DNA of 15,843 nucleotides from an uncultured Desulfovibrio sp. (GTDB taxonomy: Bacteria > Desulfobacterota > Desulfovibrionia > Desulfovibrionales > Desulfovibrionaceae): the NCBI GenBank assembly GCA_945871415.1, contig CAMBWG010000010.1:1-15843 (forward strand). The letters run 5' to 3'. This document shows, in pieces, positions 1,977 through 15,728 of the stretch. The translations under genes were made by a program, and so were the position numbers. How positions within the stretch are numbered: the stretch's first letter is position 1; the number at the start of each line of letters is the position of its first letter. The notes beneath the pieces were generated by a model, which was given only the letters and a program-made list of their open reading frames with translations, was not told where the DNA came from and made no database searches.

Positions 1977-3743
1977 ATGGTGGACTCTTCTGGCCCGTCT
2001 GCTGCCTGTCCCCGGCTTGTGCTGGGCTTGATGCCTTCCGGCGCAACCCCGGAATTCTTTCGTCCGTCCGGGCCGTGGTGTTTTGCCGGGCAGGAGGAAT
2101 TCTTTCCCGACTGGGAAGAGCGTTTTCTCTTTCCGCCGGAGCCGTTGCGCTGCGCGGACGAGGCGGCGCGGGCCGCGGAGGAGGCGCAGGCCCTCTGCGC
2201 GGACAGTATTCCCCGCGTGGCGGCGCAGCTCTGTCCGCACTGGGCGGATTTGCCGGAAAGCTACTGGGAGACGCTGCTGGCTCCGTGGGCCATCGTCGTG
2301 GCCAGTCAGATTGTGGAACGGCAGAAGCGCGTGCAGGCCCTGTGCGCGGCATGGGGCGACAGCCCGCTGGAAGTGGAGCTGCTGCCGGAGAACTGCCGTT
2401 TTGTCTTCGGCACGGATCAGGACGTGGTCCTGCACGGAGCGCTGGGGGCGGAGTTCAATCACTGGCTTTTTTCACGTCTGCTGGAGGCGCAATGGCCCGC
2501 CGCCTGGCGCAGGATTGCGTTGCCGGAGATGGAACGGCATTTTTCCCGGGAGGAAGATATGCCGCAAAGCGGCCGACGCGCCGCTTTGAAACAGCGCCTG
2601 CGGGAGCTGCTGCTGCGTCTGCCCTTCCCCCGGCTCAAGGGGATGAGTCTGACGCAGGCGCTGCGCTTTTCTCTTGCTCTGCGCGGTGAATGCGCGGGCG
2701 AGGATCGCGGGCGCAGCCTGCGCGAGGCCTTCGGTTCCGAGGCTACCGGGCGTGTCTGTGCTCTGCCGCTGGACCCTCTGCCTCTGTTTATGGCGGCCCT
2801 GCCGGAGAGTCTGCGGCGTCTGGAGCACCCGCCGGCCATTTTCCCGCCGCTGGGCAGGCGGCATCTGCGTGTTGCCAGCGTCGCCGCATATGAAGATGCG
2901 GAATACAGGCGTTTTCTGGCGGAGTGGCGCGCACAGGGGCACCGCCTTGCCTATGTGCAGCATGGCGGTAACTACGGTCAGATTGCCACGGCCTGCGCCA
3001 CGGCCGTGGTGGAATTCAGCCAGCACGCCTTTTTTACCTGGGGCTGGGATTCCTATACTGCGCGCGGCCTTGGTAAGGGAGACGGCCCCTGCTGGCTTCC
3101 TCTGCCCTATCCGCAGCTTGCGGCCATGAAGGATGCCTGGCGGGGCGGCAGCGGCCGGCTGATTCTGGTCGGCACGGAAATGCCGTTGTACGCCTATCGC
3201 CTGGATGCCCGTCCGACGCCGCTGCAGATGGTTCAGTACCGGGAGGATAAGCAGTGGTTTCTGGAGGCCCTGCCGCGCGCCGTGCAGGATGTGACCTATT
3301 ATCGCCCGTATTTCGATGTGCCGGGATCGCTGGAAGACGCGCCGTGGCTGCTGCCCCGTTTCCCGCACGTGCATCTGTGCACCGGATCGCTGGAAGAACA
3401 TATGCTGTCCTGCCGGCTGCTTGTGCTGGATCATAACTGCACAACGCTTCTGCAGGCGCTGGCCGCCAATGTGCCGACCATTGCCTTCTGGACGCGGGAT
3501 GTCTGGCCGCAGACAGCGGAGGCCGGAGCCTGGATTGATGCGCTGGCCGAAGCCGGCATCTGGCAGCCCACAGCGGAAAGCGCAGCCGCCAAAGTCTACG
3601 AGGTCTGGGATGATCCGCTTGTCTGGTGGCGCAGCGAGGCTGTGCAGCGTGTGCGGCGCGATTTCTGCCGCTGCCATGCCCGGACAACGGACGGCTCTCC
3701 CGTCCCTCTCTGGATACGGACTCTCAACAGGCTGATAAAATAA
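1977..3743 (+). CDS. LIC12162-family putative transferase (O-antigen-associated)
   Basis: The product is a 588-residue soluble protein without a signal peptide or membrane segments. I assign it to the LIC12162 family of putative transferases, known from polysaccharide loci, based on length and motifs. These are AYVQHGGNYG (about residue 323), VVEFSQHAFFTWGWDSY (about 342-358), and a C-terminal LDHNCTTLLQALAANVPTIAFW (about 483-504). That last stretch resembles the nucleotide-sugar or acceptor end of GT-B-like folds, where a conserved acidic residue precedes a small-residue helix. The catalytic reaction of this family has not, to my knowledge, been established. CGGAG (1966-1970) sits 6 nt before the ATG. 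The gene follows neuB on the same strand, and such proximity suggests that it works on nonulosonate or a related surface sugar. Its stop codon overlaps the start of the Sel1 gene. Confidence 0.65.
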   Translation: MVDSSGPSAACPRLVLGLMPSGATPEFFRPSGPWCFAGQEEFFPDWEERFLFPPEPLRCADEAARAAEEAQALCADSIPRVAAQLCPHWADLPESYWETLLAPWAIVVASQIVERQKRVQALCAAWGDSPLEVELLPENCRFVFGTDQDVVLHGALGAEFNHWLFSRLLEAQWPAAWRRIALPEMERHFSREEDMPQSGRRAALKQRLRELLLRLPFPRLKGMSLTQALRFSLALRGECAGEDRGRSLREAFGSEATGRVCALPLDPLPLFMAALPESLRRLEHPPAIFPPLGRRHLRVASVAAYEDAEYRRFLAEWRAQGHRLAYVQHGGNYGQIATACATAVVEFSQHAFFTWGWDSYTARGLGKGDGPCWLPLPYPQLAAMKDAWRGGSGRLILVGTEMPLYAYRLDARPTPLQMVQYREDKQWFLEALPRAVQDVTYYRPYFDVPGSLEDAPWLLPRFPHVHLCTGSLEEHMLSCRLLVLDHNCTTLLQALAANVPTIAFWTRDVWPQTAEAGAWIDALAEAGIWQPTAESAAAKVYEVWDDPLVWWRSEAVQRVRRDFCRCHARTTDGSPVPLWIRTLNRLIK

Positions 3744-4768
3744 TGACGAAACAAAAATTGGGTTTAATGGCGCTGTGCCTGTGTATGGCGCTGGGTGGGA
3801 GCCCTGACGCTTTCGGCGCTCCGGCTGCGGAAAAGGCGGCGGCCGCCGAAGCCGCCGGGGCCGCCGCGCCGGAAGCGGCAAGTCTTACGGAAGTGCAGGC
3901 CGCGCTGGATGCGGACAATGCGGAAAAGGCCGTGGAGCTGCTCAAACCGCTGGTGAAAAAGAAACAGCCCGAAGCCATGTACGTCATGGGGCGTCTGGCG
4001 CTGGAAGGGCGCGGCACGCGCCGCAGCCCTGTCTATGCGGCGACATTGTTTCAGGAGGCGGCCCAGAAGGGAGATATCCGGGCCCAGAACGCCATCGGCA
4101 CGGCGTACGCGCGCGGACAGGGCGTCAAGCGGCATTACGGCGAGGCGGCACGCTGGTTCCGCAAGGCCGCGGAGCAGGGGCATGCCGTGGCTCAGTGCAA
4201 CCTTGCCTATCTGTATTCGCAGGGGCGCGGCGTGCGCAGGAGTCAGGAAAGCGCCATTGAATGGTACAGCCGGGCCGCCAATCAGGGACTGGCGGATGCC
4301 CAGTATAATCTGGGGCGTCTGTACATGAGCGTCAAGGGCGAGCTTCAGGATGATGTGAAGGCCGTTCACTGGCTGGAAAAGGCCGCGGAGCAGGATCACG
4401 CCCGGGCGCAGAATGTGCTGGGCTACATGTACGCCGAGGGGCGCGGTTATGCGCAGGACAATGCCAGGGCCCTGCAATGGTATCAGCGCGCGGCGGATCA
4501 CGGGCTGGCCGAAGCGCAGTACAACCTGGGCTACATGTACGAGCAGGGGCGCGGCGTGGCGCAGGACTACGTCAAGGCCGTGGAATGGTACCGCAAGGCC
4601 GCCGATCAGGGCGATGCCACGGCGCAGTACAGCCTTGGCCTGATGTATGATCAGGGGACCGGCGTTCCCGCCAATCTGAGCGAGGCCAATCGCTGGTACC
4701 GGCTGGCTGCCAAGAACGGCGACCCCGATGCAAAAGCCGTGATTCGTTCGCAGGAACGGGGGAAATAG
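3743..4768 (+). CDS. secreted Sel1-like repeat (SLR/TPR-type) protein
   Basis: The 341-residue product has a clear signal peptide: a basic start MTKQKLG, a hydrophobic core, and likely cleavage after DAFGA near residue 26. A short Ala-rich linker (about 27-48) follows, then at least seven tandem 36-residue Sel1 repeats from about residue 75 to 330. Each shows the pattern AxAQxxLGxxYxxGxGVxxDxxxAxxWYxxAAxQG. Repeat 4 departs from the pattern (MSVKGELQDDV instead of the GxGV turn). These solenoids are protein-interaction scaffolds; a periplasmic location is expected. The start ATG shares its A with the TAA stop of the upstream gene (TAATG), so translation is probably coupled. This is unusual, because the partner is a cytoplasmic transferase. 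The TAG stop abuts the first repeat copy. No enzymatic role is implied. Confidence 0.9.
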   Translation: MTKQKLGLMALCLCMALGGSPDAFGAPAAEKAAAAEAAGAAAPEAASLTEVQAALDADNAEKAVELLKPLVKKKQPEAMYVMGRLALEGRGTRRSPVYAATLFQEAAQKGDIRAQNAIGTAYARGQGVKRHYGEAARWFRKAAEQGHAVAQCNLAYLYSQGRGVRRSQESAIEWYSRAANQGLADAQYNLGRLYMSVKGELQDDVKAVHWLEKAAEQDHARAQNVLGYMYAEGRGYAQDNARALQWYQRAADHGLAEAQYNLGYMYEQGRGVAQDYVKAVEWYRKAADQGDATAQYSLGLMYDQGTGVPANLSEANRWYRLAAKNGDPDAKAVIRSQERGK

Positions 4769-4893
4769 AGAGCGTTTCACCTTTGAAAAAGGAGAAACGC
4801 GAGGCGGCGGCACAGCGCCGCCCGGCCCAAGGTGAGCGGAAAAACGTGTTTTTTCCCGCGAAACGACAGGCCGTATGGTTTGAAACGTTGCAC
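4767..4893 (+). repeat. CTAG-ended repeat, copy A (5' portion, truncated)
   Basis: It matches the first ~120 bp of the full copies. It has the 5' hairpin GCGTTTCACCTTT-GAA-AAAGGAGAAACGC (one A.A mismatch), the GC hairpin GGCGGCG/CGCCGCC, the GCGGAAAAA.../TTTTTTCCCGC hairpin, and the conserved ACAGGCCGTATGG block. Similarity is lost after GGTTTGAAA (about 4876-4884), so the 3' stem is not formed. Its left edge overlaps the Sel1 TAG stop (4766-4768). Confidence 0.8.
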
Positions 4894-4903
4894 CTTGAAA
4901 AAA

Positions 4904-4956
4904 TATCCCCCGGCGGCGCGTTTTCCGTATCGCGTTGCCGGGGGTATCTTTATGTT
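4904..4956. terminator. putative bidirectional terminator between the convergent Sel1 and fliR genes
   Basis: A 14-bp stem (4907-4920 with 4931-4944) starts with five C-G pairs. It has two adjacent G.U pairs when read as + strand RNA and a 10-nt loop. On the + strand TATCTTTAT follows; on the minus strand ATATTTTTTC follows, which is a good U-tract. It could end both transcripts. On the minus strand the two G.U pairs become mismatches. Confidence 0.6.
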
Positions 4957-4962
4957 CTCTGG

Positions 4963-5027
4963 GCTGTTGTTCCGGGTGACAGATGGTGTTTCCCGGAACA
5001 AACTATGCGGAACAACAGCGTTTTTTT
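4963..5027 (+). terminator. terminator-like hairpin with a competing inner hairpin
   Basis: A 12-bp perfect stem, GCTGTTGTTCCG (4963-4974) with CGGAACAACAGC (5008-5019), is followed by G and seven T residues (5021-5027). The same left arm can instead pair as TTGTTCCGGG (4967-4976) with CCCGGAACAA (4992-5001), which leaves the distal arm free. This resembles mutually exclusive leader structures, but no gene lies downstream on the + strand. Confidence 0.45.
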
Positions 5028-5087
5028 CGCAAAACAACAGGCCGTATGGTTTGAAATGCAAAGTATTTCAAACTGAAAATGCTCTAG
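5008..5087 (+). repeat. CTAG-ended repeat, copy B (3' portion)
   Basis: It matches the last ~80 bp of the full copies. It has GCGGAA...TTTTTTTCGC, then ACAACAGGCCGTATGG, the 10-bp stem TTTGAAATGC-AAA-GTATTTCAAA (one G.U), and the terminus CTGAAAATGCTCTAG. Its final CTAG (5084-5087) is also the first CTAG of copy C, forming the palindrome GCTCTAGAGC. Confidence 0.8.
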
Positions 5088-5233
5088 AGCGTTTCAACTT
5101 TGAAAAAGGTGAAACGCGAGGCGGCGGCACAGCGCCGCCCGGCCCGAAGTGAGCGGAAAAACCGCGCTTTTTCCGCGAAACGACAGGCCGTATGGTTTGA
5201 AATGCAAAGTATTTCAAACTGAAAATGCTCTAG
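5084..5233 (+). repeat. CTAG-ended repeat, copy C (full length, 150 bp)
   Basis: It begins and ends with CTAG. The outer 22 bases at each end are imperfect inverted repeats (18 of 22 match: CTAGAGCGTTTCAACTTTG.. against CTAGAGCATTTTCAGTTTG..). Four stem-loops follow one another: 5092-5120, GGCGGCG/CGCCGCC, GCGGAAAAA/TTTTTCCGC (9 bp, perfect), and TTTGAAATGC/GTATTTCAAA. The closing CTAG (5230-5233) contains the fliR stop codon on the minus strand. Confidence 0.85.
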
Positions 5234-10496: not shown

Positions 10497-10644
10497 CTGG
10501 GGCGCTTTATCTTTGAAAAGGTAAAAACGCGAGGCGGCGGCACAGCCCGCCCGGCCCGAATTGTGCGGAAAACCGCGTTTTTCCCGAGATCCGGCAGGCC
10601 GTATGGTTTGAAATGCGAAGCGTTTCAAACTGAAGATGCTTCAG
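10497..10644 (+). repeat. CTAG-ended repeat, copy D (decayed, 148 bp)
   Basis: It is collinear with the full copies but more diverged: CTGGGGCGCTTTATCTTTG at the left, then GCGAGGCGGCGGCACAG, GCGGAAAA.. TTTTTCCCG, GGCAGGCCGTATGG, the perfect-length 3' stem TTTGAAATGC-GAA-GCGTTTCAAA (one U.G), and CTGAAGATGCTTCAG at the right. The terminal CTAGs have become CTGG and TCAG. Confidence 0.78.
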
Positions 10645-14305: not shown

Positions 14306-14455
14306 CTGGAGCGTTTTACCTTTGAAAAAGGTGAAGCGCGAGGCGGCGGCCCGCGCCGCCGGGCACTGATAAGCGTAAAAAAGCTTTTTTCCGCTAAACG
14401 ACATGGGCCTTATGGCTTGAAACGCAACACGCGTTTCAATCTGAAAATGCTCTAG
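14306..14455 (+). repeat. CTAG-ended repeat, copy E (full length, 150 bp)
   Basis: It has the same length and block order as copy C, with CTGG at the left end and CTAG at the right. The 5' hairpin GCGTTTTACCTTT-GAA-AAAGGTGAAGCGC closes with two U.G pairs on the + strand. The 3' stem is TTGAAACGC/GCGTTTCAA, perfect, where copy C has an A-T or G.U at the corresponding pairs. The closing CTAG (14452-14455) contains the stop codon of the minus-strand glycosyltransferase gene. Confidence 0.85.
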
Positions 14456-15429
14456 CGGCAGGCGTCGGGAGCGCCCGCGGACTGGTCACCGCCCTTGCGG
14501 ATGATATTTCTGATCTTGTAGGACTTCTTGTCCTGGGCCTCAAAGTACGTCCGGCTCAGGACTTCCGCCAGCAGCCCCATGAGAATGGAGTTGACGCCAA
14601 GCAGGAAGGAAAGGCCCGCAAAGGTCGGCAGGGGCGTCTGAATCAGGGATGTGTCGCCGAAGATTTTGAGCCCAAGCGCCCAGATCAGGGTCAGCAGCGA
14701 CAGAAGCACGGCAAACAGACCGAAACCGCCAAAGACATAGATGGGCTTGACCAGATGGCGGTCAAGGAACTTGACCACGCAGAGATCCAGAAGCACCTTG
14801 AAAATACGTTCAAGCCCGTATTTGCTCTTGCCGTGTATACGCGGATGATGCGTGACGGGCATTTCCGTCACGCGGGCGCCCTGCCAGGAGGCATAAATGG
14901 GGATGAAGCGGTGCATTTCGCCGTAGATGCGCACGCCGTCCAGCATTTCGCGGCGGTAGGCCTTGAGGGAGCAGCCGTAGTCGTGCAGCCGCACTCCGGA
15001 CACGAAGGAGATAAGCCGGTTGGCGATGTGGCTGGGCAGATTGCGGGTCAGCTCGGCATCCTTGCGATCCTTGCGCCAGCCGGAAACAACGTCGTAACCT
15101 TCGTCCAGCTTGGCCACAAGGCGGCCGATATCGGCGGGATCATTCTGAAGATCGCCGTCCATCGGAATAATGATGTCGCCCCGGGCATTGTCGATGCCGG
15201 CCATGAGGGCGGCCGTCTGGCCGCAGTTGCGGGCCAGATGGATAACCACAAGCGCCTCGTCTCCGGCGGCCAGCGCGTCAAGAATTTCAGCGCTGCCGTC
15301 CTTGCTGCCGTCGTCGATCAGCAGCAGCTCGTAGGGCGTATTCAGCTTGCGTACTTCTTCCGTCACTCTGGCGTGAAGTTCGCGCACATTGTCACGTTCA
15401 TTATAAATAGGAATTATGATGGAAAGCAT
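14452..15429 (-). CDS. family 2 glycosyltransferase, DPM1/ArnC/GtrB-like (polyprenyl-phosphate type)
   Basis: The enzyme is predicted to transfer a sugar from a nucleotide donor to polyprenyl phosphate at the cytoplasmic face of the inner membrane. The 325-residue product has a GT-A domain at about 1-215: LSIIIPIYNERDNV at the start, LLLIDDGSKDGS (about 36-46), HLARNCGQTAALMAGIDNARGD, and MDGDLQNDP (DxD-type metal site near 91-93). HDYGCSLKAYRREM and HHPRIHGKSKYGL follow. Two hydrophobic hairpin helices lie at about 228-250 and 266-292, as in GtrB and ArnC. AAGGAG 4 nt before the ATG fixes the start. The last codons are followed by a TAG contributed by repeat copy E. A possible sigma-70 promoter precedes it. 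It may be read through into asnB; the 253-bp gap contains the repeat. Confidence 0.92.
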   Translation of the reverse strand: MLSIIIPIYNERDNVRELHARVTEEVRKLNTPYELLLIDDGSKDGSAEILDALAAGDEALVVIHLARNCGQTAALMAGIDNARGDIIIPMDGDLQNDPADIGRLVAKLDEGYDVVSGWRKDRKDAELTRNLPSHIANRLISFVSGVRLHDYGCSLKAYRREMLDGVRIYGEMHRFIPIYASWQGARVTEMPVTHHPRIHGKSKYGLERIFKVLLDLCVVKFLDRHLVKPIYVFGGFGLFAVLLSLLTLIWALGLKIFGDTSLIQTPLPTFAGLSFLLGVNSILMGLLAEVLSRTYFEAQDKKSYKIRNIIRKGGDQSAGAPDACR

Positions 15430-15652: not shown

Positions 15653-15728
15653 GGGGAAGTAGCTCAGCTGGGAGAGCATCGCCTTCGCAAGGCGGGGGTC
15701 GAGGGTTCAAATCCCTTCTTCTCCACCA
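15653..15728 (+). tRNA. tRNA-Ala (anticodon CGC)
   Basis: The 76-nt gene has a complete cloverleaf: acceptor GGGGAAG/CTTCTCC, D arm GCTC/GAGC, anticodon stem TCGCC/GGCGG with loop TTCGCAA (anticodon CGC, reading GCG), T arm GAGGG/CCCTT with TTCAAAT, and an encoded CCA. The acceptor contains the G3.U70 pair, the alanine identity element. A promoter precedes it and a terminator follows. Confidence 0.97.

What the first reader, a model, noticed from the sequence alone, without database searches (positions are those of the whole stretch)
5084..5233. A ~150-bp CTAG-ended dispersed repeat family with MITE-like terminal inverted repeats
Two full copies (5084-5233, 14306-14455), one decayed copy (10497-10644) and two partial copies (4767-4893, 5008-5087) occur in under 10 kb, all intergenic and all in the same orientation. 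Ends carry CTAG/CTGG and 22-bp inverted repeats (18/22 in copy C). This density suggests a high-copy genomic element. I do not recognise it as a named family, and no transposase that could mobilise it is in the window.
Basis: partly seen in the sequence, partly recalled or inferred. Interest (0 to 1): 0.72.

Follow-up and report, generated by a model that had tools for sequence, protein, structure and literature searches.

The report
High-copy folded MITE in Desulfovibrio
A Desulfovibrio bacterium carries several hundred copies of a 148-base jumping DNA element that is too short to encode a transposase, folds into hairpins, and was most likely spread by the enzyme of an IS630-type insertion sequence found in its relatives, often landing exactly on a gene's stop codon.

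Summary
The repeat is real and highly amplified: 387 core matches (control 0) in the window's 2.56-Mb draft genome. It is a MITE: TAGAGC ends, TA target duplication, YTAR target, and occupied/empty allele pairs between sister species, two exact at the junction. Its partner, not found in the own draft, is an IS630-family insertion sequence in sister species; one IS end equals the MITE's left end over 21 of 21 bases, and similarity stops there. Two additions. (1) Both ends read TAG inwards, so insertion into a TAA/TAG stop codon restores a stop; many copies sit on apparent gene ends, including window copies C and E. (2) The interior is a multi-hairpin fold with strong covariation: 19 of 33 pairs change on both sides in 15 sequences from 8 genomes. 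The same core occurs without recognisable TAGAGC ends at conserved loci in other species, for example between leuC and leuD. It reached no Rfam gathering score, and my paper searches showed no description. It is a new member of the IS630/RUP-type MITEs; whether the core is functional is open.

The parts
5085..5232 (+). Copy C, full-length element (148 bp with the TA at both ends; CTAG at both borders)
   Evidence: not present at the orthologous gene end in G021 and G098, judged from the gene side only
5085..5105 (+). Left terminal repeat of copy C, TAGAGCGTTTCAACTTTGAAA, identical over 21 of 21 bases to one end of the IS630-family element of G021
5212..5232 (-). Right terminal repeat of copy C (TAGAGCATTTTCAGTTTGAAA on the minus strand)
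5084..5090 (+). P1: pairs with 5227-5233 and closes the fold
   Evidence: Fold
5091..5115 (+). Hairpin P2
   Evidence: Fold
5120..5139 (+). Hairpin P3 (GC-rich)
5140..5190 (+). P4: outer stem CGGCC/GGCCG, loop strands AAGTGA and GAAACGACA, inner stem GCGGAAAAA/TTTTTCCGC
5194..5220 (+). Hairpin P5 (TTTGAAATGC..GTATTTCAAA)
4767..4885 (+). Copy A, right end lost; its start coincides with the stop codon of ORF 3626-4768; a shorter relic with the same start is seen at that gene end in G093
5007..5087 (+). Copy B, right half only, sharing its CTAG with copy C (tandem)
10497..10644 (+). Copy D, full length, diverged, just upstream of an rmlA-like gene (name recalled from the ORF sequence)
14306..14455 (+). 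Copy E, full length, lowest model score in the window; its right end supplies the stop codon of ORF 14452-15429(-); not seen at this place in G021, G098 and G093

Best explanation
It is a MITE of the IS630/Tc1-mariner type. An IS630-family transposase made by a full-length IS, now or formerly in the lineage, recognises the roughly 21-bp TAGAGC ends, cuts the element out and inserts it at YTAR (ideally CTAG), duplicating the TA. Because each end reads TAG inwards, insertion into a TAA or TAG stop codon recreates a stop. Gene ends are therefore benign landing sites, and copies accumulate there and in intergenic gaps. The interior is too short for a transposase; it is a chain of hairpins whose pairing is kept although its sequence changes. 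Shown: copy number, ends, TA and YTAR, empty alleles, match of IS and MITE ends, covariation. Inferred: trans-mobilisation by that transposase, and the reason why the fold is kept.
For: Copy number: 387 core matches against 0 control; 127 model hits in 577 kb. Target: Y in front of the terminal dinucleotide at 166 of 196 ends (G000), 154 of 190 (G021) and 82 of 97 (G098); the dinucleotide is still TA at 110, 122 and 77 of these. Occupied/empty pairs: of 496 element comparisons with flanks, 43 could be placed, some of them reciprocal; 14 were scored empty, 14 occupied, 15 other. By eye two empties are exact at the junction with the TA doubled (G098 L101:7564 vs G021 L133; G098 L173:6384 vs G000 L201) and three differ by a lost TA or a few bases (G021 L406:2192 and 8956 vs G000 L233; G000 L239:943 vs G021 L218). 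Copy E is not seen in the three genomes where its neighbour gene was found (G021, G098, G093), nor copy C in G021 and G098. Partner: a 995-bp IS in G021 (L312:1396-2390) and a 993-bp IS in G098 (L166:4759-5751) with TAGAGC ends. The G098 protein (322 aa) is an IS630 transposase: NF033545 at 193 bits, cut-off 100; PF13358 at 116 bits. MITE and IS ends agree 21/21 in G021 and, for the copy compared, 21/21 in G098; in G002, whose ends differ, they agree 16/17 with G002's own IS. Stop codons: an open frame of at least 100 codons ends at the element's TAG at 39 of 105 ends in G000 (19 and 14 in the other two frames; Wilcoxon p 0.002) and 36 of 111 in G021 (10 and 10; p 0.00015). Fold: z = -7.7, 0 of 200 shuffles as good; covariation 0.343 vs 0.117 in shuffles, 0 of 500 as high.
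Against: No relative of this transposase was found in the window's own genome: 0 matches at 1e-10, draft about 79% complete. Its one DDE_3 match (G000:C172, 47 bits) has no TAGAGC pair around it. Only 6 of the 12 genomes at the match limit for the element carry a related transposase, against 13 of the other 67. The G021 IS has its reading frame split in two. The right end of the element matches the G021 IS ends less well, 13 of 17. Of 14 'empty' calls one is clean on one side only and eight are ragged or nested in other copies. The stop-codon excess is weaker in G098 (22 of 73 against 10 and 9; p 0.066), and at other YTAR sites of the G000 contigs the in-frame share is already 20.7%, lower than another frame's 30.2%.
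Confidence: 0.86

Rival explanations
1. The element is mobilised by an IS5-family, IS427-type transposase; ISs of that family in the same genus also sit at CTAG.
For: PF13340/PF01609 elements of about 827-857 bp in the genus have termini at CTAG or YTA sites.
Against: In the 12 of 30 PF13340 loci whose ends could be read, they go on as, for example, GTAGTGTC, GGGCTGTTTC or AAGTCATTTC, none as TAGAGCRTTT (similar), while an IS630-family end matches over 21 bases. The other 18 loci were cut off or gave no readable ends.
Confidence: 0.05
2. It is a functional regulatory RNA or intergenic element kept by selection, whose spread by transposition is secondary or ancient.
For: Covariation in 31 of 33 pairs over 52 matches (alignment fitted to the model) and in 19 of 33 on an unfitted alignment. 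Copies without TAGAGC ends lie at shared loci: leuC-leuD in four genomes, and downstream of a radical-SAM-like gene in five genomes whose loci align at about 70-90% identity.
Against: No orientation preference relative to open frames ending at the element: 53 of 148 left ends, 44 of 141 right ends. Several hundred copies in one genome, and copy number differs widely between genomes of the genus. No match at an Rfam gathering score.
Confidence: 0.2
3. The compensatory changes come from mutation rather than selection: template switching within imperfect palindromes corrects one arm from the other.
For: Arms change in step; within one genome 28 of 33 pairs show some change on both sides. That such a process is known is recalled, not looked up.
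Against: The outer P4 stem, whose arms lie about 40 bases apart, also covaries (CG to GC, GC to CG), and the strands beside the P4 stem (AAGTGA, GAAACGACA in copy C) are largely conserved though mostly unpaired.
Confidence: 0.25
4. REP/BIME-type palindromic repeat spread by a Y1 (RAYT) transposase.
For: Multi-hairpin, high copy, at gene borders.
Against: It has terminal inverted repeats, a TA duplication and full-length empty sites, which from general knowledge a single-strand Y1 mechanism would not give. No search for RAYT genes was made.
Confidence: 0.03

Closest known systems
RUP (repeat unit of pneumococcus, about 107 bp, proposed to be moved by IS630-Spn1; PMC3049150 passages, PMC2229807 part 1 of 3)
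   Same: Short, non-coding, TIRs like those of a resident IS630-family IS, TA at the termini, target duplication, folds with its TIRs paired, high copy
   Different: Other host phylum, 148 bp, GC-rich hairpins, 21-base end match to the IS, YTAR/stop-codon landing; no sequence comparison with RUP was made
Correia/NEMIS elements of Neisseria (PMC2229807 part 1, PMC10969869 passages)
   Same: 107-155 bp, TIRs, TA termini, stable fold in transcripts, over 120 copies
   Different: Ends recalled as TATAG-type instead of TAGAGC; IHF and promoter motifs not looked for here
ERIC (enterobacteria; up to 711 copies in Photorhabdus, PMC10969869 passages)
   Same: TIR, TA at the termini, folded, comparable copy number
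   Different: Gammaproteobacteria; here an IS with matching ends was found
Chunjie MITE of Geobacter uraniireducens and QMITE2 of Coxiella (PMC10969869 passages)
   Same: Families with full and truncated copies, including copies that lost the terminal repeats
   Different: 38 copies plus 57 partial ones, and 78 copies; no covarying core at conserved loci is mentioned in the passages I saw
IS630 of Shigella and ISY100 (PMC2170065 passages; title of Tenzen and Ohtsubo 1991 seen in its reference list)
   Same: TA duplication; CTAG preference for IS630 by that title; cut-and-paste
   Different: Those are autonomous elements; the one here is not

Membership tests
Bacterial MITE | Short element without a transposase gene, with terminal inverted repeats | tested here: met
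   148 bp, too short for a transposase; TIR 18/22 in copy C
Bacterial MITE | Many dispersed copies in one genome | tested here: met
   387 core matches, control 0
Bacterial MITE | Target-site duplication and occupied/empty alleles | tested here: met
   Two pairs exact at the junction and three near-clean among 14 scored empty, of 43 placed
IS630/Tc1-mariner-type MITE | TA duplication at YTAR/CTAG | tested here: met
   Y in front of the terminal dinucleotide at 166 of 196, 154 of 190 and 82 of 97 ends; dinucleotide still TA at 110, 122 and 77
IS630/Tc1-mariner-type MITE | Ends match those of an IS630-family element in the same or a sister genome | tested here: met
   21/21 for one end in G021 and G098; protein NF033545, PF13358; not found in the own draft genome
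IS630/Tc1-mariner-type MITE | Mobilised in trans by that transposase | not testable with these tools
   Needs an excision or insertion assay
RUP | Sequence homology to RUP | not tested
   RUP sequence not fetched; similarity is of kind only
IS5/IS427-derived MITE | Ends match an IS5-family element | tested here: not met
   None of the 12 of 30 PF13340 loci with readable ends has TAGAGCRTTT; 18 of 30 not readable
Known Rfam RNA family | Match at the gathering score | tested here: not met
   Window and 12 loci: only tRNA, LSU rRNA and 5S rRNA; relaxed scans gave only sub-threshold hits

The most novel reading that the evidence does not exclude
The MITE interior is older than the MITE. A structured RNA or nucleic-acid-binding element of the Desulfovibrionaceae, still standing alone without TAGAGC ends at conserved loci (leuC-leuD; downstream of a radical-SAM-like gene) and once in a 23S-5S rRNA spacer, was captured between IS630-type ends and amplified to hundreds of copies, giving a genome-wide hairpin that ends genes at their own stop codon.
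Probability: 0.22. Interest if true: 0.78.

Novelty: new member of a known kind. Interest (0 to 1): 0.52.

Why it matters
It gives a multi-species MITE system with a partner IS at hand, junction-resolved empty sites between sister species, subfamilies whose ends differ, in G002 in step with its own IS, and a fold with strong covariation. That makes two questions testable: does selection or palindrome repair keep MITE hairpins, and can a MITE spread a structured RNA? It may also help to explain fragmented assemblies of these species, since a number of contigs begin or end in a copy, and it shows how an element that restores stop codons could reach several hundred copies at little cost.

Tried and rejected
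IS5/IS427 as mobiliser: considered because those ISs use CTAG; the readable ends do not match. Known RNA families: relaxed Rfam thresholds gave only sub-threshold hits such as int-alpA at 22.9 bits against a cut-off of 35.8, in the spacer between copies A and B, and RNase_MRP at 20.3 against 50. Presence in phage and plasmid records: no match; one IMG/VR contig has two copies. Kink-turn reading of the P4 loop: dropped by eye, because the GA after the stem is not followed by the second stem. Copies A and B as halves of one element: rejected, because they overlap in element positions 70-119. A search for far pairs of terminal motifs gave 28 pairs; only the L166 pair was followed up. Of the 30 DDE_3 loci, 5 showed TAGAGC-type ends (L311, L312, L313, L336, L337); L313 is the same IS as L166. 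The co-occurrence of IS630 and MITE (6 of 12 against 13 of 67) is counted but not used as proof, since drafts lose ISs. For the alignment, I kept 15 of the 24 rows printed and dropped nine: the two that did not align as cores (L068, L070), others because of N, a large insertion or a missing part of P3, or because close copies were already in. One measure is weaker: further pair types 26 against 22.2, reached by 20 of 500 shuffles. On checking the draft of this report I corrected the number of genomes behind (8, not 7) and moved one empty site to one-sided; the confidence of the main reading went from 0.87 to 0.86 for that.

Full report
What was checked. The alignment of 44 stretches longer than 100 bases from the first 30 loci and the window gives a 148-base element TAGAGCGTTTCAACTTTG...AAAATGCTCTA. 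The core pattern, with up to 3 mismatches, occurs 387 times in the draft genome (200 forward, 187 reverse; reversed-pattern control 0; 2,556,977 bases, 435 contigs, completeness 79%). In the window and the other 40 largest contigs (577,426 bases) the model finds 127 matches, or about 560 if the whole draft is alike. A number of copies lie at contig ends, so the finished genome may hold more.

Where it occurs. Contig lengths tie G021 to Ca. D. intestinigallinarum (DXFI) and G098 to the uncultured Desulfovibrio BRZ_SQ bin37 (CALVHG). By DNA search 10 of 36 same-genus and 0 of 24 same-order genomes match, some only over short stretches. With the model 36 of 79 genus genomes (own included) match at 0.001, 12 of them at the limit of 49 scored places, and 38 of 288 family genomes match at 1e-5: 27 of the genus and 11 of five other genera. 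The last two used stricter filters and a limited number of scored places.

Mobility. Flanks of full-length copies were mapped between three genomes held in part (630, 668 and 245 kb). Of 496 element comparisons with usable flanks, 43 could be placed, some of them reciprocal: 14 empty, 14 occupied, 15 other. Read by eye, two empties are exact at the junction with the TA doubled (G098 L101:7564-7711 against G021 L133; G098 L173:6384-6531 against G000 L201). Three more differ by a TA turned into TG, one extra base or a few extra flank bases (G021 L406:2192 and 8956 against G000 L233; G000 L239:943 against G021 L218). One is clean on the left only (G000 L229:9709). The other eight are nested in other copies or ragged; one of these (L194:2097) leaves TGAGCTGA at the empty place, which could be a deletion remnant rather than a virgin site. 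In the window itself, copy C is absent at the same gene end in G021 and G098, judged from the gene side because the far flank does not align; the same gene end in G092, G095 and G097 has other relics of the repeat nearby. Copy E is not seen in the three genomes where its neighbour gene was found (G021, G098, G093). Median identity of copies to the consensus is 89.2% in G000, 93.9% in G021 and 92.6% in G098, so copies in G000 look older.

The partner. A scan of all held DNA for paired TAGAGC-type ends too far apart to be the repeat, and a scan of the genus for DDE_3 genes (ends), led to the same elements: 995 bp in G021 (L312:1396-2390) and 993 bp in G098 (L166:4759-5751). The G098 element encodes one 322-aa protein over almost its whole length, an IS630-family transposase (NF033545, 193 bits, cut-off 100; PF13358, 116 bits). 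In G021 the frame is split into 135 and 208 aa. IS630-family elements with TAGAGC-like ends were also read in G002, G024 and G016. End comparison: the MITE left end equals one IS end over 21 of 21 bases in G021, and in G098 for the copy compared, and similarity stops there. In G002, whose MITE ends differ, the right end fits G002's own IS at 16 of 17. So the MITE shares the ends only and is not a simple internal deletion of the IS found. The own draft has no match to this transposase at 1e-10 and one other DDE_3 match without TAGAGC ends around it. Related transposases occur in 19 of 79 genus genomes, including 6 of the 12 with most copies.

Stop codons. The inward reading of each end is TAG. 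In window copies C and E this TAG is the stop codon of the neighbouring ORF, and copy A starts at the stop codon of ORF 3626-4768. Over ends with an intact TAG, an open frame of at least 100 codons ends exactly there at 39 of 105 (G000), 36 of 111 (G021) and 22 of 73 (G098). In the other two frames the counts are 19 and 14, 10 and 10, and 10 and 9; Wilcoxon p is 0.002, 0.00015 and 0.066. At 1079 other YTAR sites of the G000 contigs the in-frame figure is 20.7%, the other frames 11.8% and 30.2%, so target choice plus removal of damaging insertions may explain most of it. These are open reading frames, not called genes. The element shows no strand preference at such ends (53 of 148 left, 44 of 141 right), which speaks for a selfish element rather than an orientation-bound signal.

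The fold. Copy C folds at -70 kcal/mol, z = -7.7, 0 of 200 shuffles as good; the other strand gives z = -6.4. P1 joins the ends; P2 to P5 are hairpins. On a sequence-only alignment of 15 copies from 8 genomes (15 of 24 rows), 19 of 33 pairs change on both sides, 94.9% of cells pair, and covariation is 0.343 against 0.117 in shuffles and at most 0.071 when slid; one measure, further pair types, is reached by 20 of 500 shuffles. Model-fitted alignments agree but lean towards the structure: 31 of 33 in 52 matches, 28 of 33 within G000 alone, 23 of 33 among copies of the second class described next. The strands beside the P4 stem (AAGTGA and GAAACGACA in copy C) are largely conserved. Selection is one reading; repair of imperfect palindromes is another.

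Copies without TAGAGC ends. In G007, G074, G075, G100, G004 and G073 the model finds a few copies with hairpins P3 to P5, and often a P2, but by eye no TAGAGC ends. Some loci are shared between species: leuC-leuD in G074, G100, G075 and G004, and downstream of a radical-SAM-like gene in G073, G074, G100, G075 and G007, whose loci align at about 70-90% identity. The neighbouring ORFs were read in one genome each, and leuC, leuD and radical-SAM are named from recall of the sequences. One copy in G075 lies between the 23S and 5S rRNA genes. They may be ancient insertions that lost their ends, or the source of the core.

Known or not. Paper searches in the held library (listings and abstract starts) showed no description of this repeat; subscription papers are mostly missing. 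I saw passages of PMC3049150, PMC10969869, PMC2170065 and PMC4853749 and part 1 of 3 of PMC2229807: RUP is the closest kind, ERIC reaches 711 copies, a MITE of Thiomargarita hits 260 of 439 contigs, and IS630-type elements insert at TA. I therefore file it as a new member of the IS630-type MITEs, with an unusual core.

Noticed in passing
L187:1580-1730 and L187:5980-6130: A 6.4-kb IMG/VR contig with phage-tail-like ORFs (named by recall) carries two copies of the element between ORFs, a possible route between hosts.
   Followed up: partly
L432:665-767: A core copy without TAGAGC ends sits between the 23S and 5S rRNA genes of G075.
   Followed up: partly
L421 and L422, beside the core at 1501-1607: At the leuC-leuD locus of G075 and G004 about 74 bases are inserted within the core, before the AAAGTGA strand, compared with G074.
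   Followed up: no
L433:1501-1759 (minus strand): Two core copies in tandem downstream of a radical-SAM-like gene, with a long hairpin inside P5.
   Followed up: partly
window 4896-4954: A GC-rich hairpin followed by T-rich sequence lies between copies A and B, possibly the terminator of ORF 3626-4768; weak Rfam hits fall here.
   Followed up: no
G020:C1 and G091:C1: The IS load differs greatly in the genus: 63 DDE_Tnp_1 matches in G020 and 29 DUF4096 matches in G091.
   Followed up: no
L306, near 763: A TAGAGC-ended short hairpin near an IS5-family gene in G087, perhaps another miniature element.
   Followed up: no
window 15653-15725: A tRNA gene on the plus strand, 65.4 bits.
   Followed up: no
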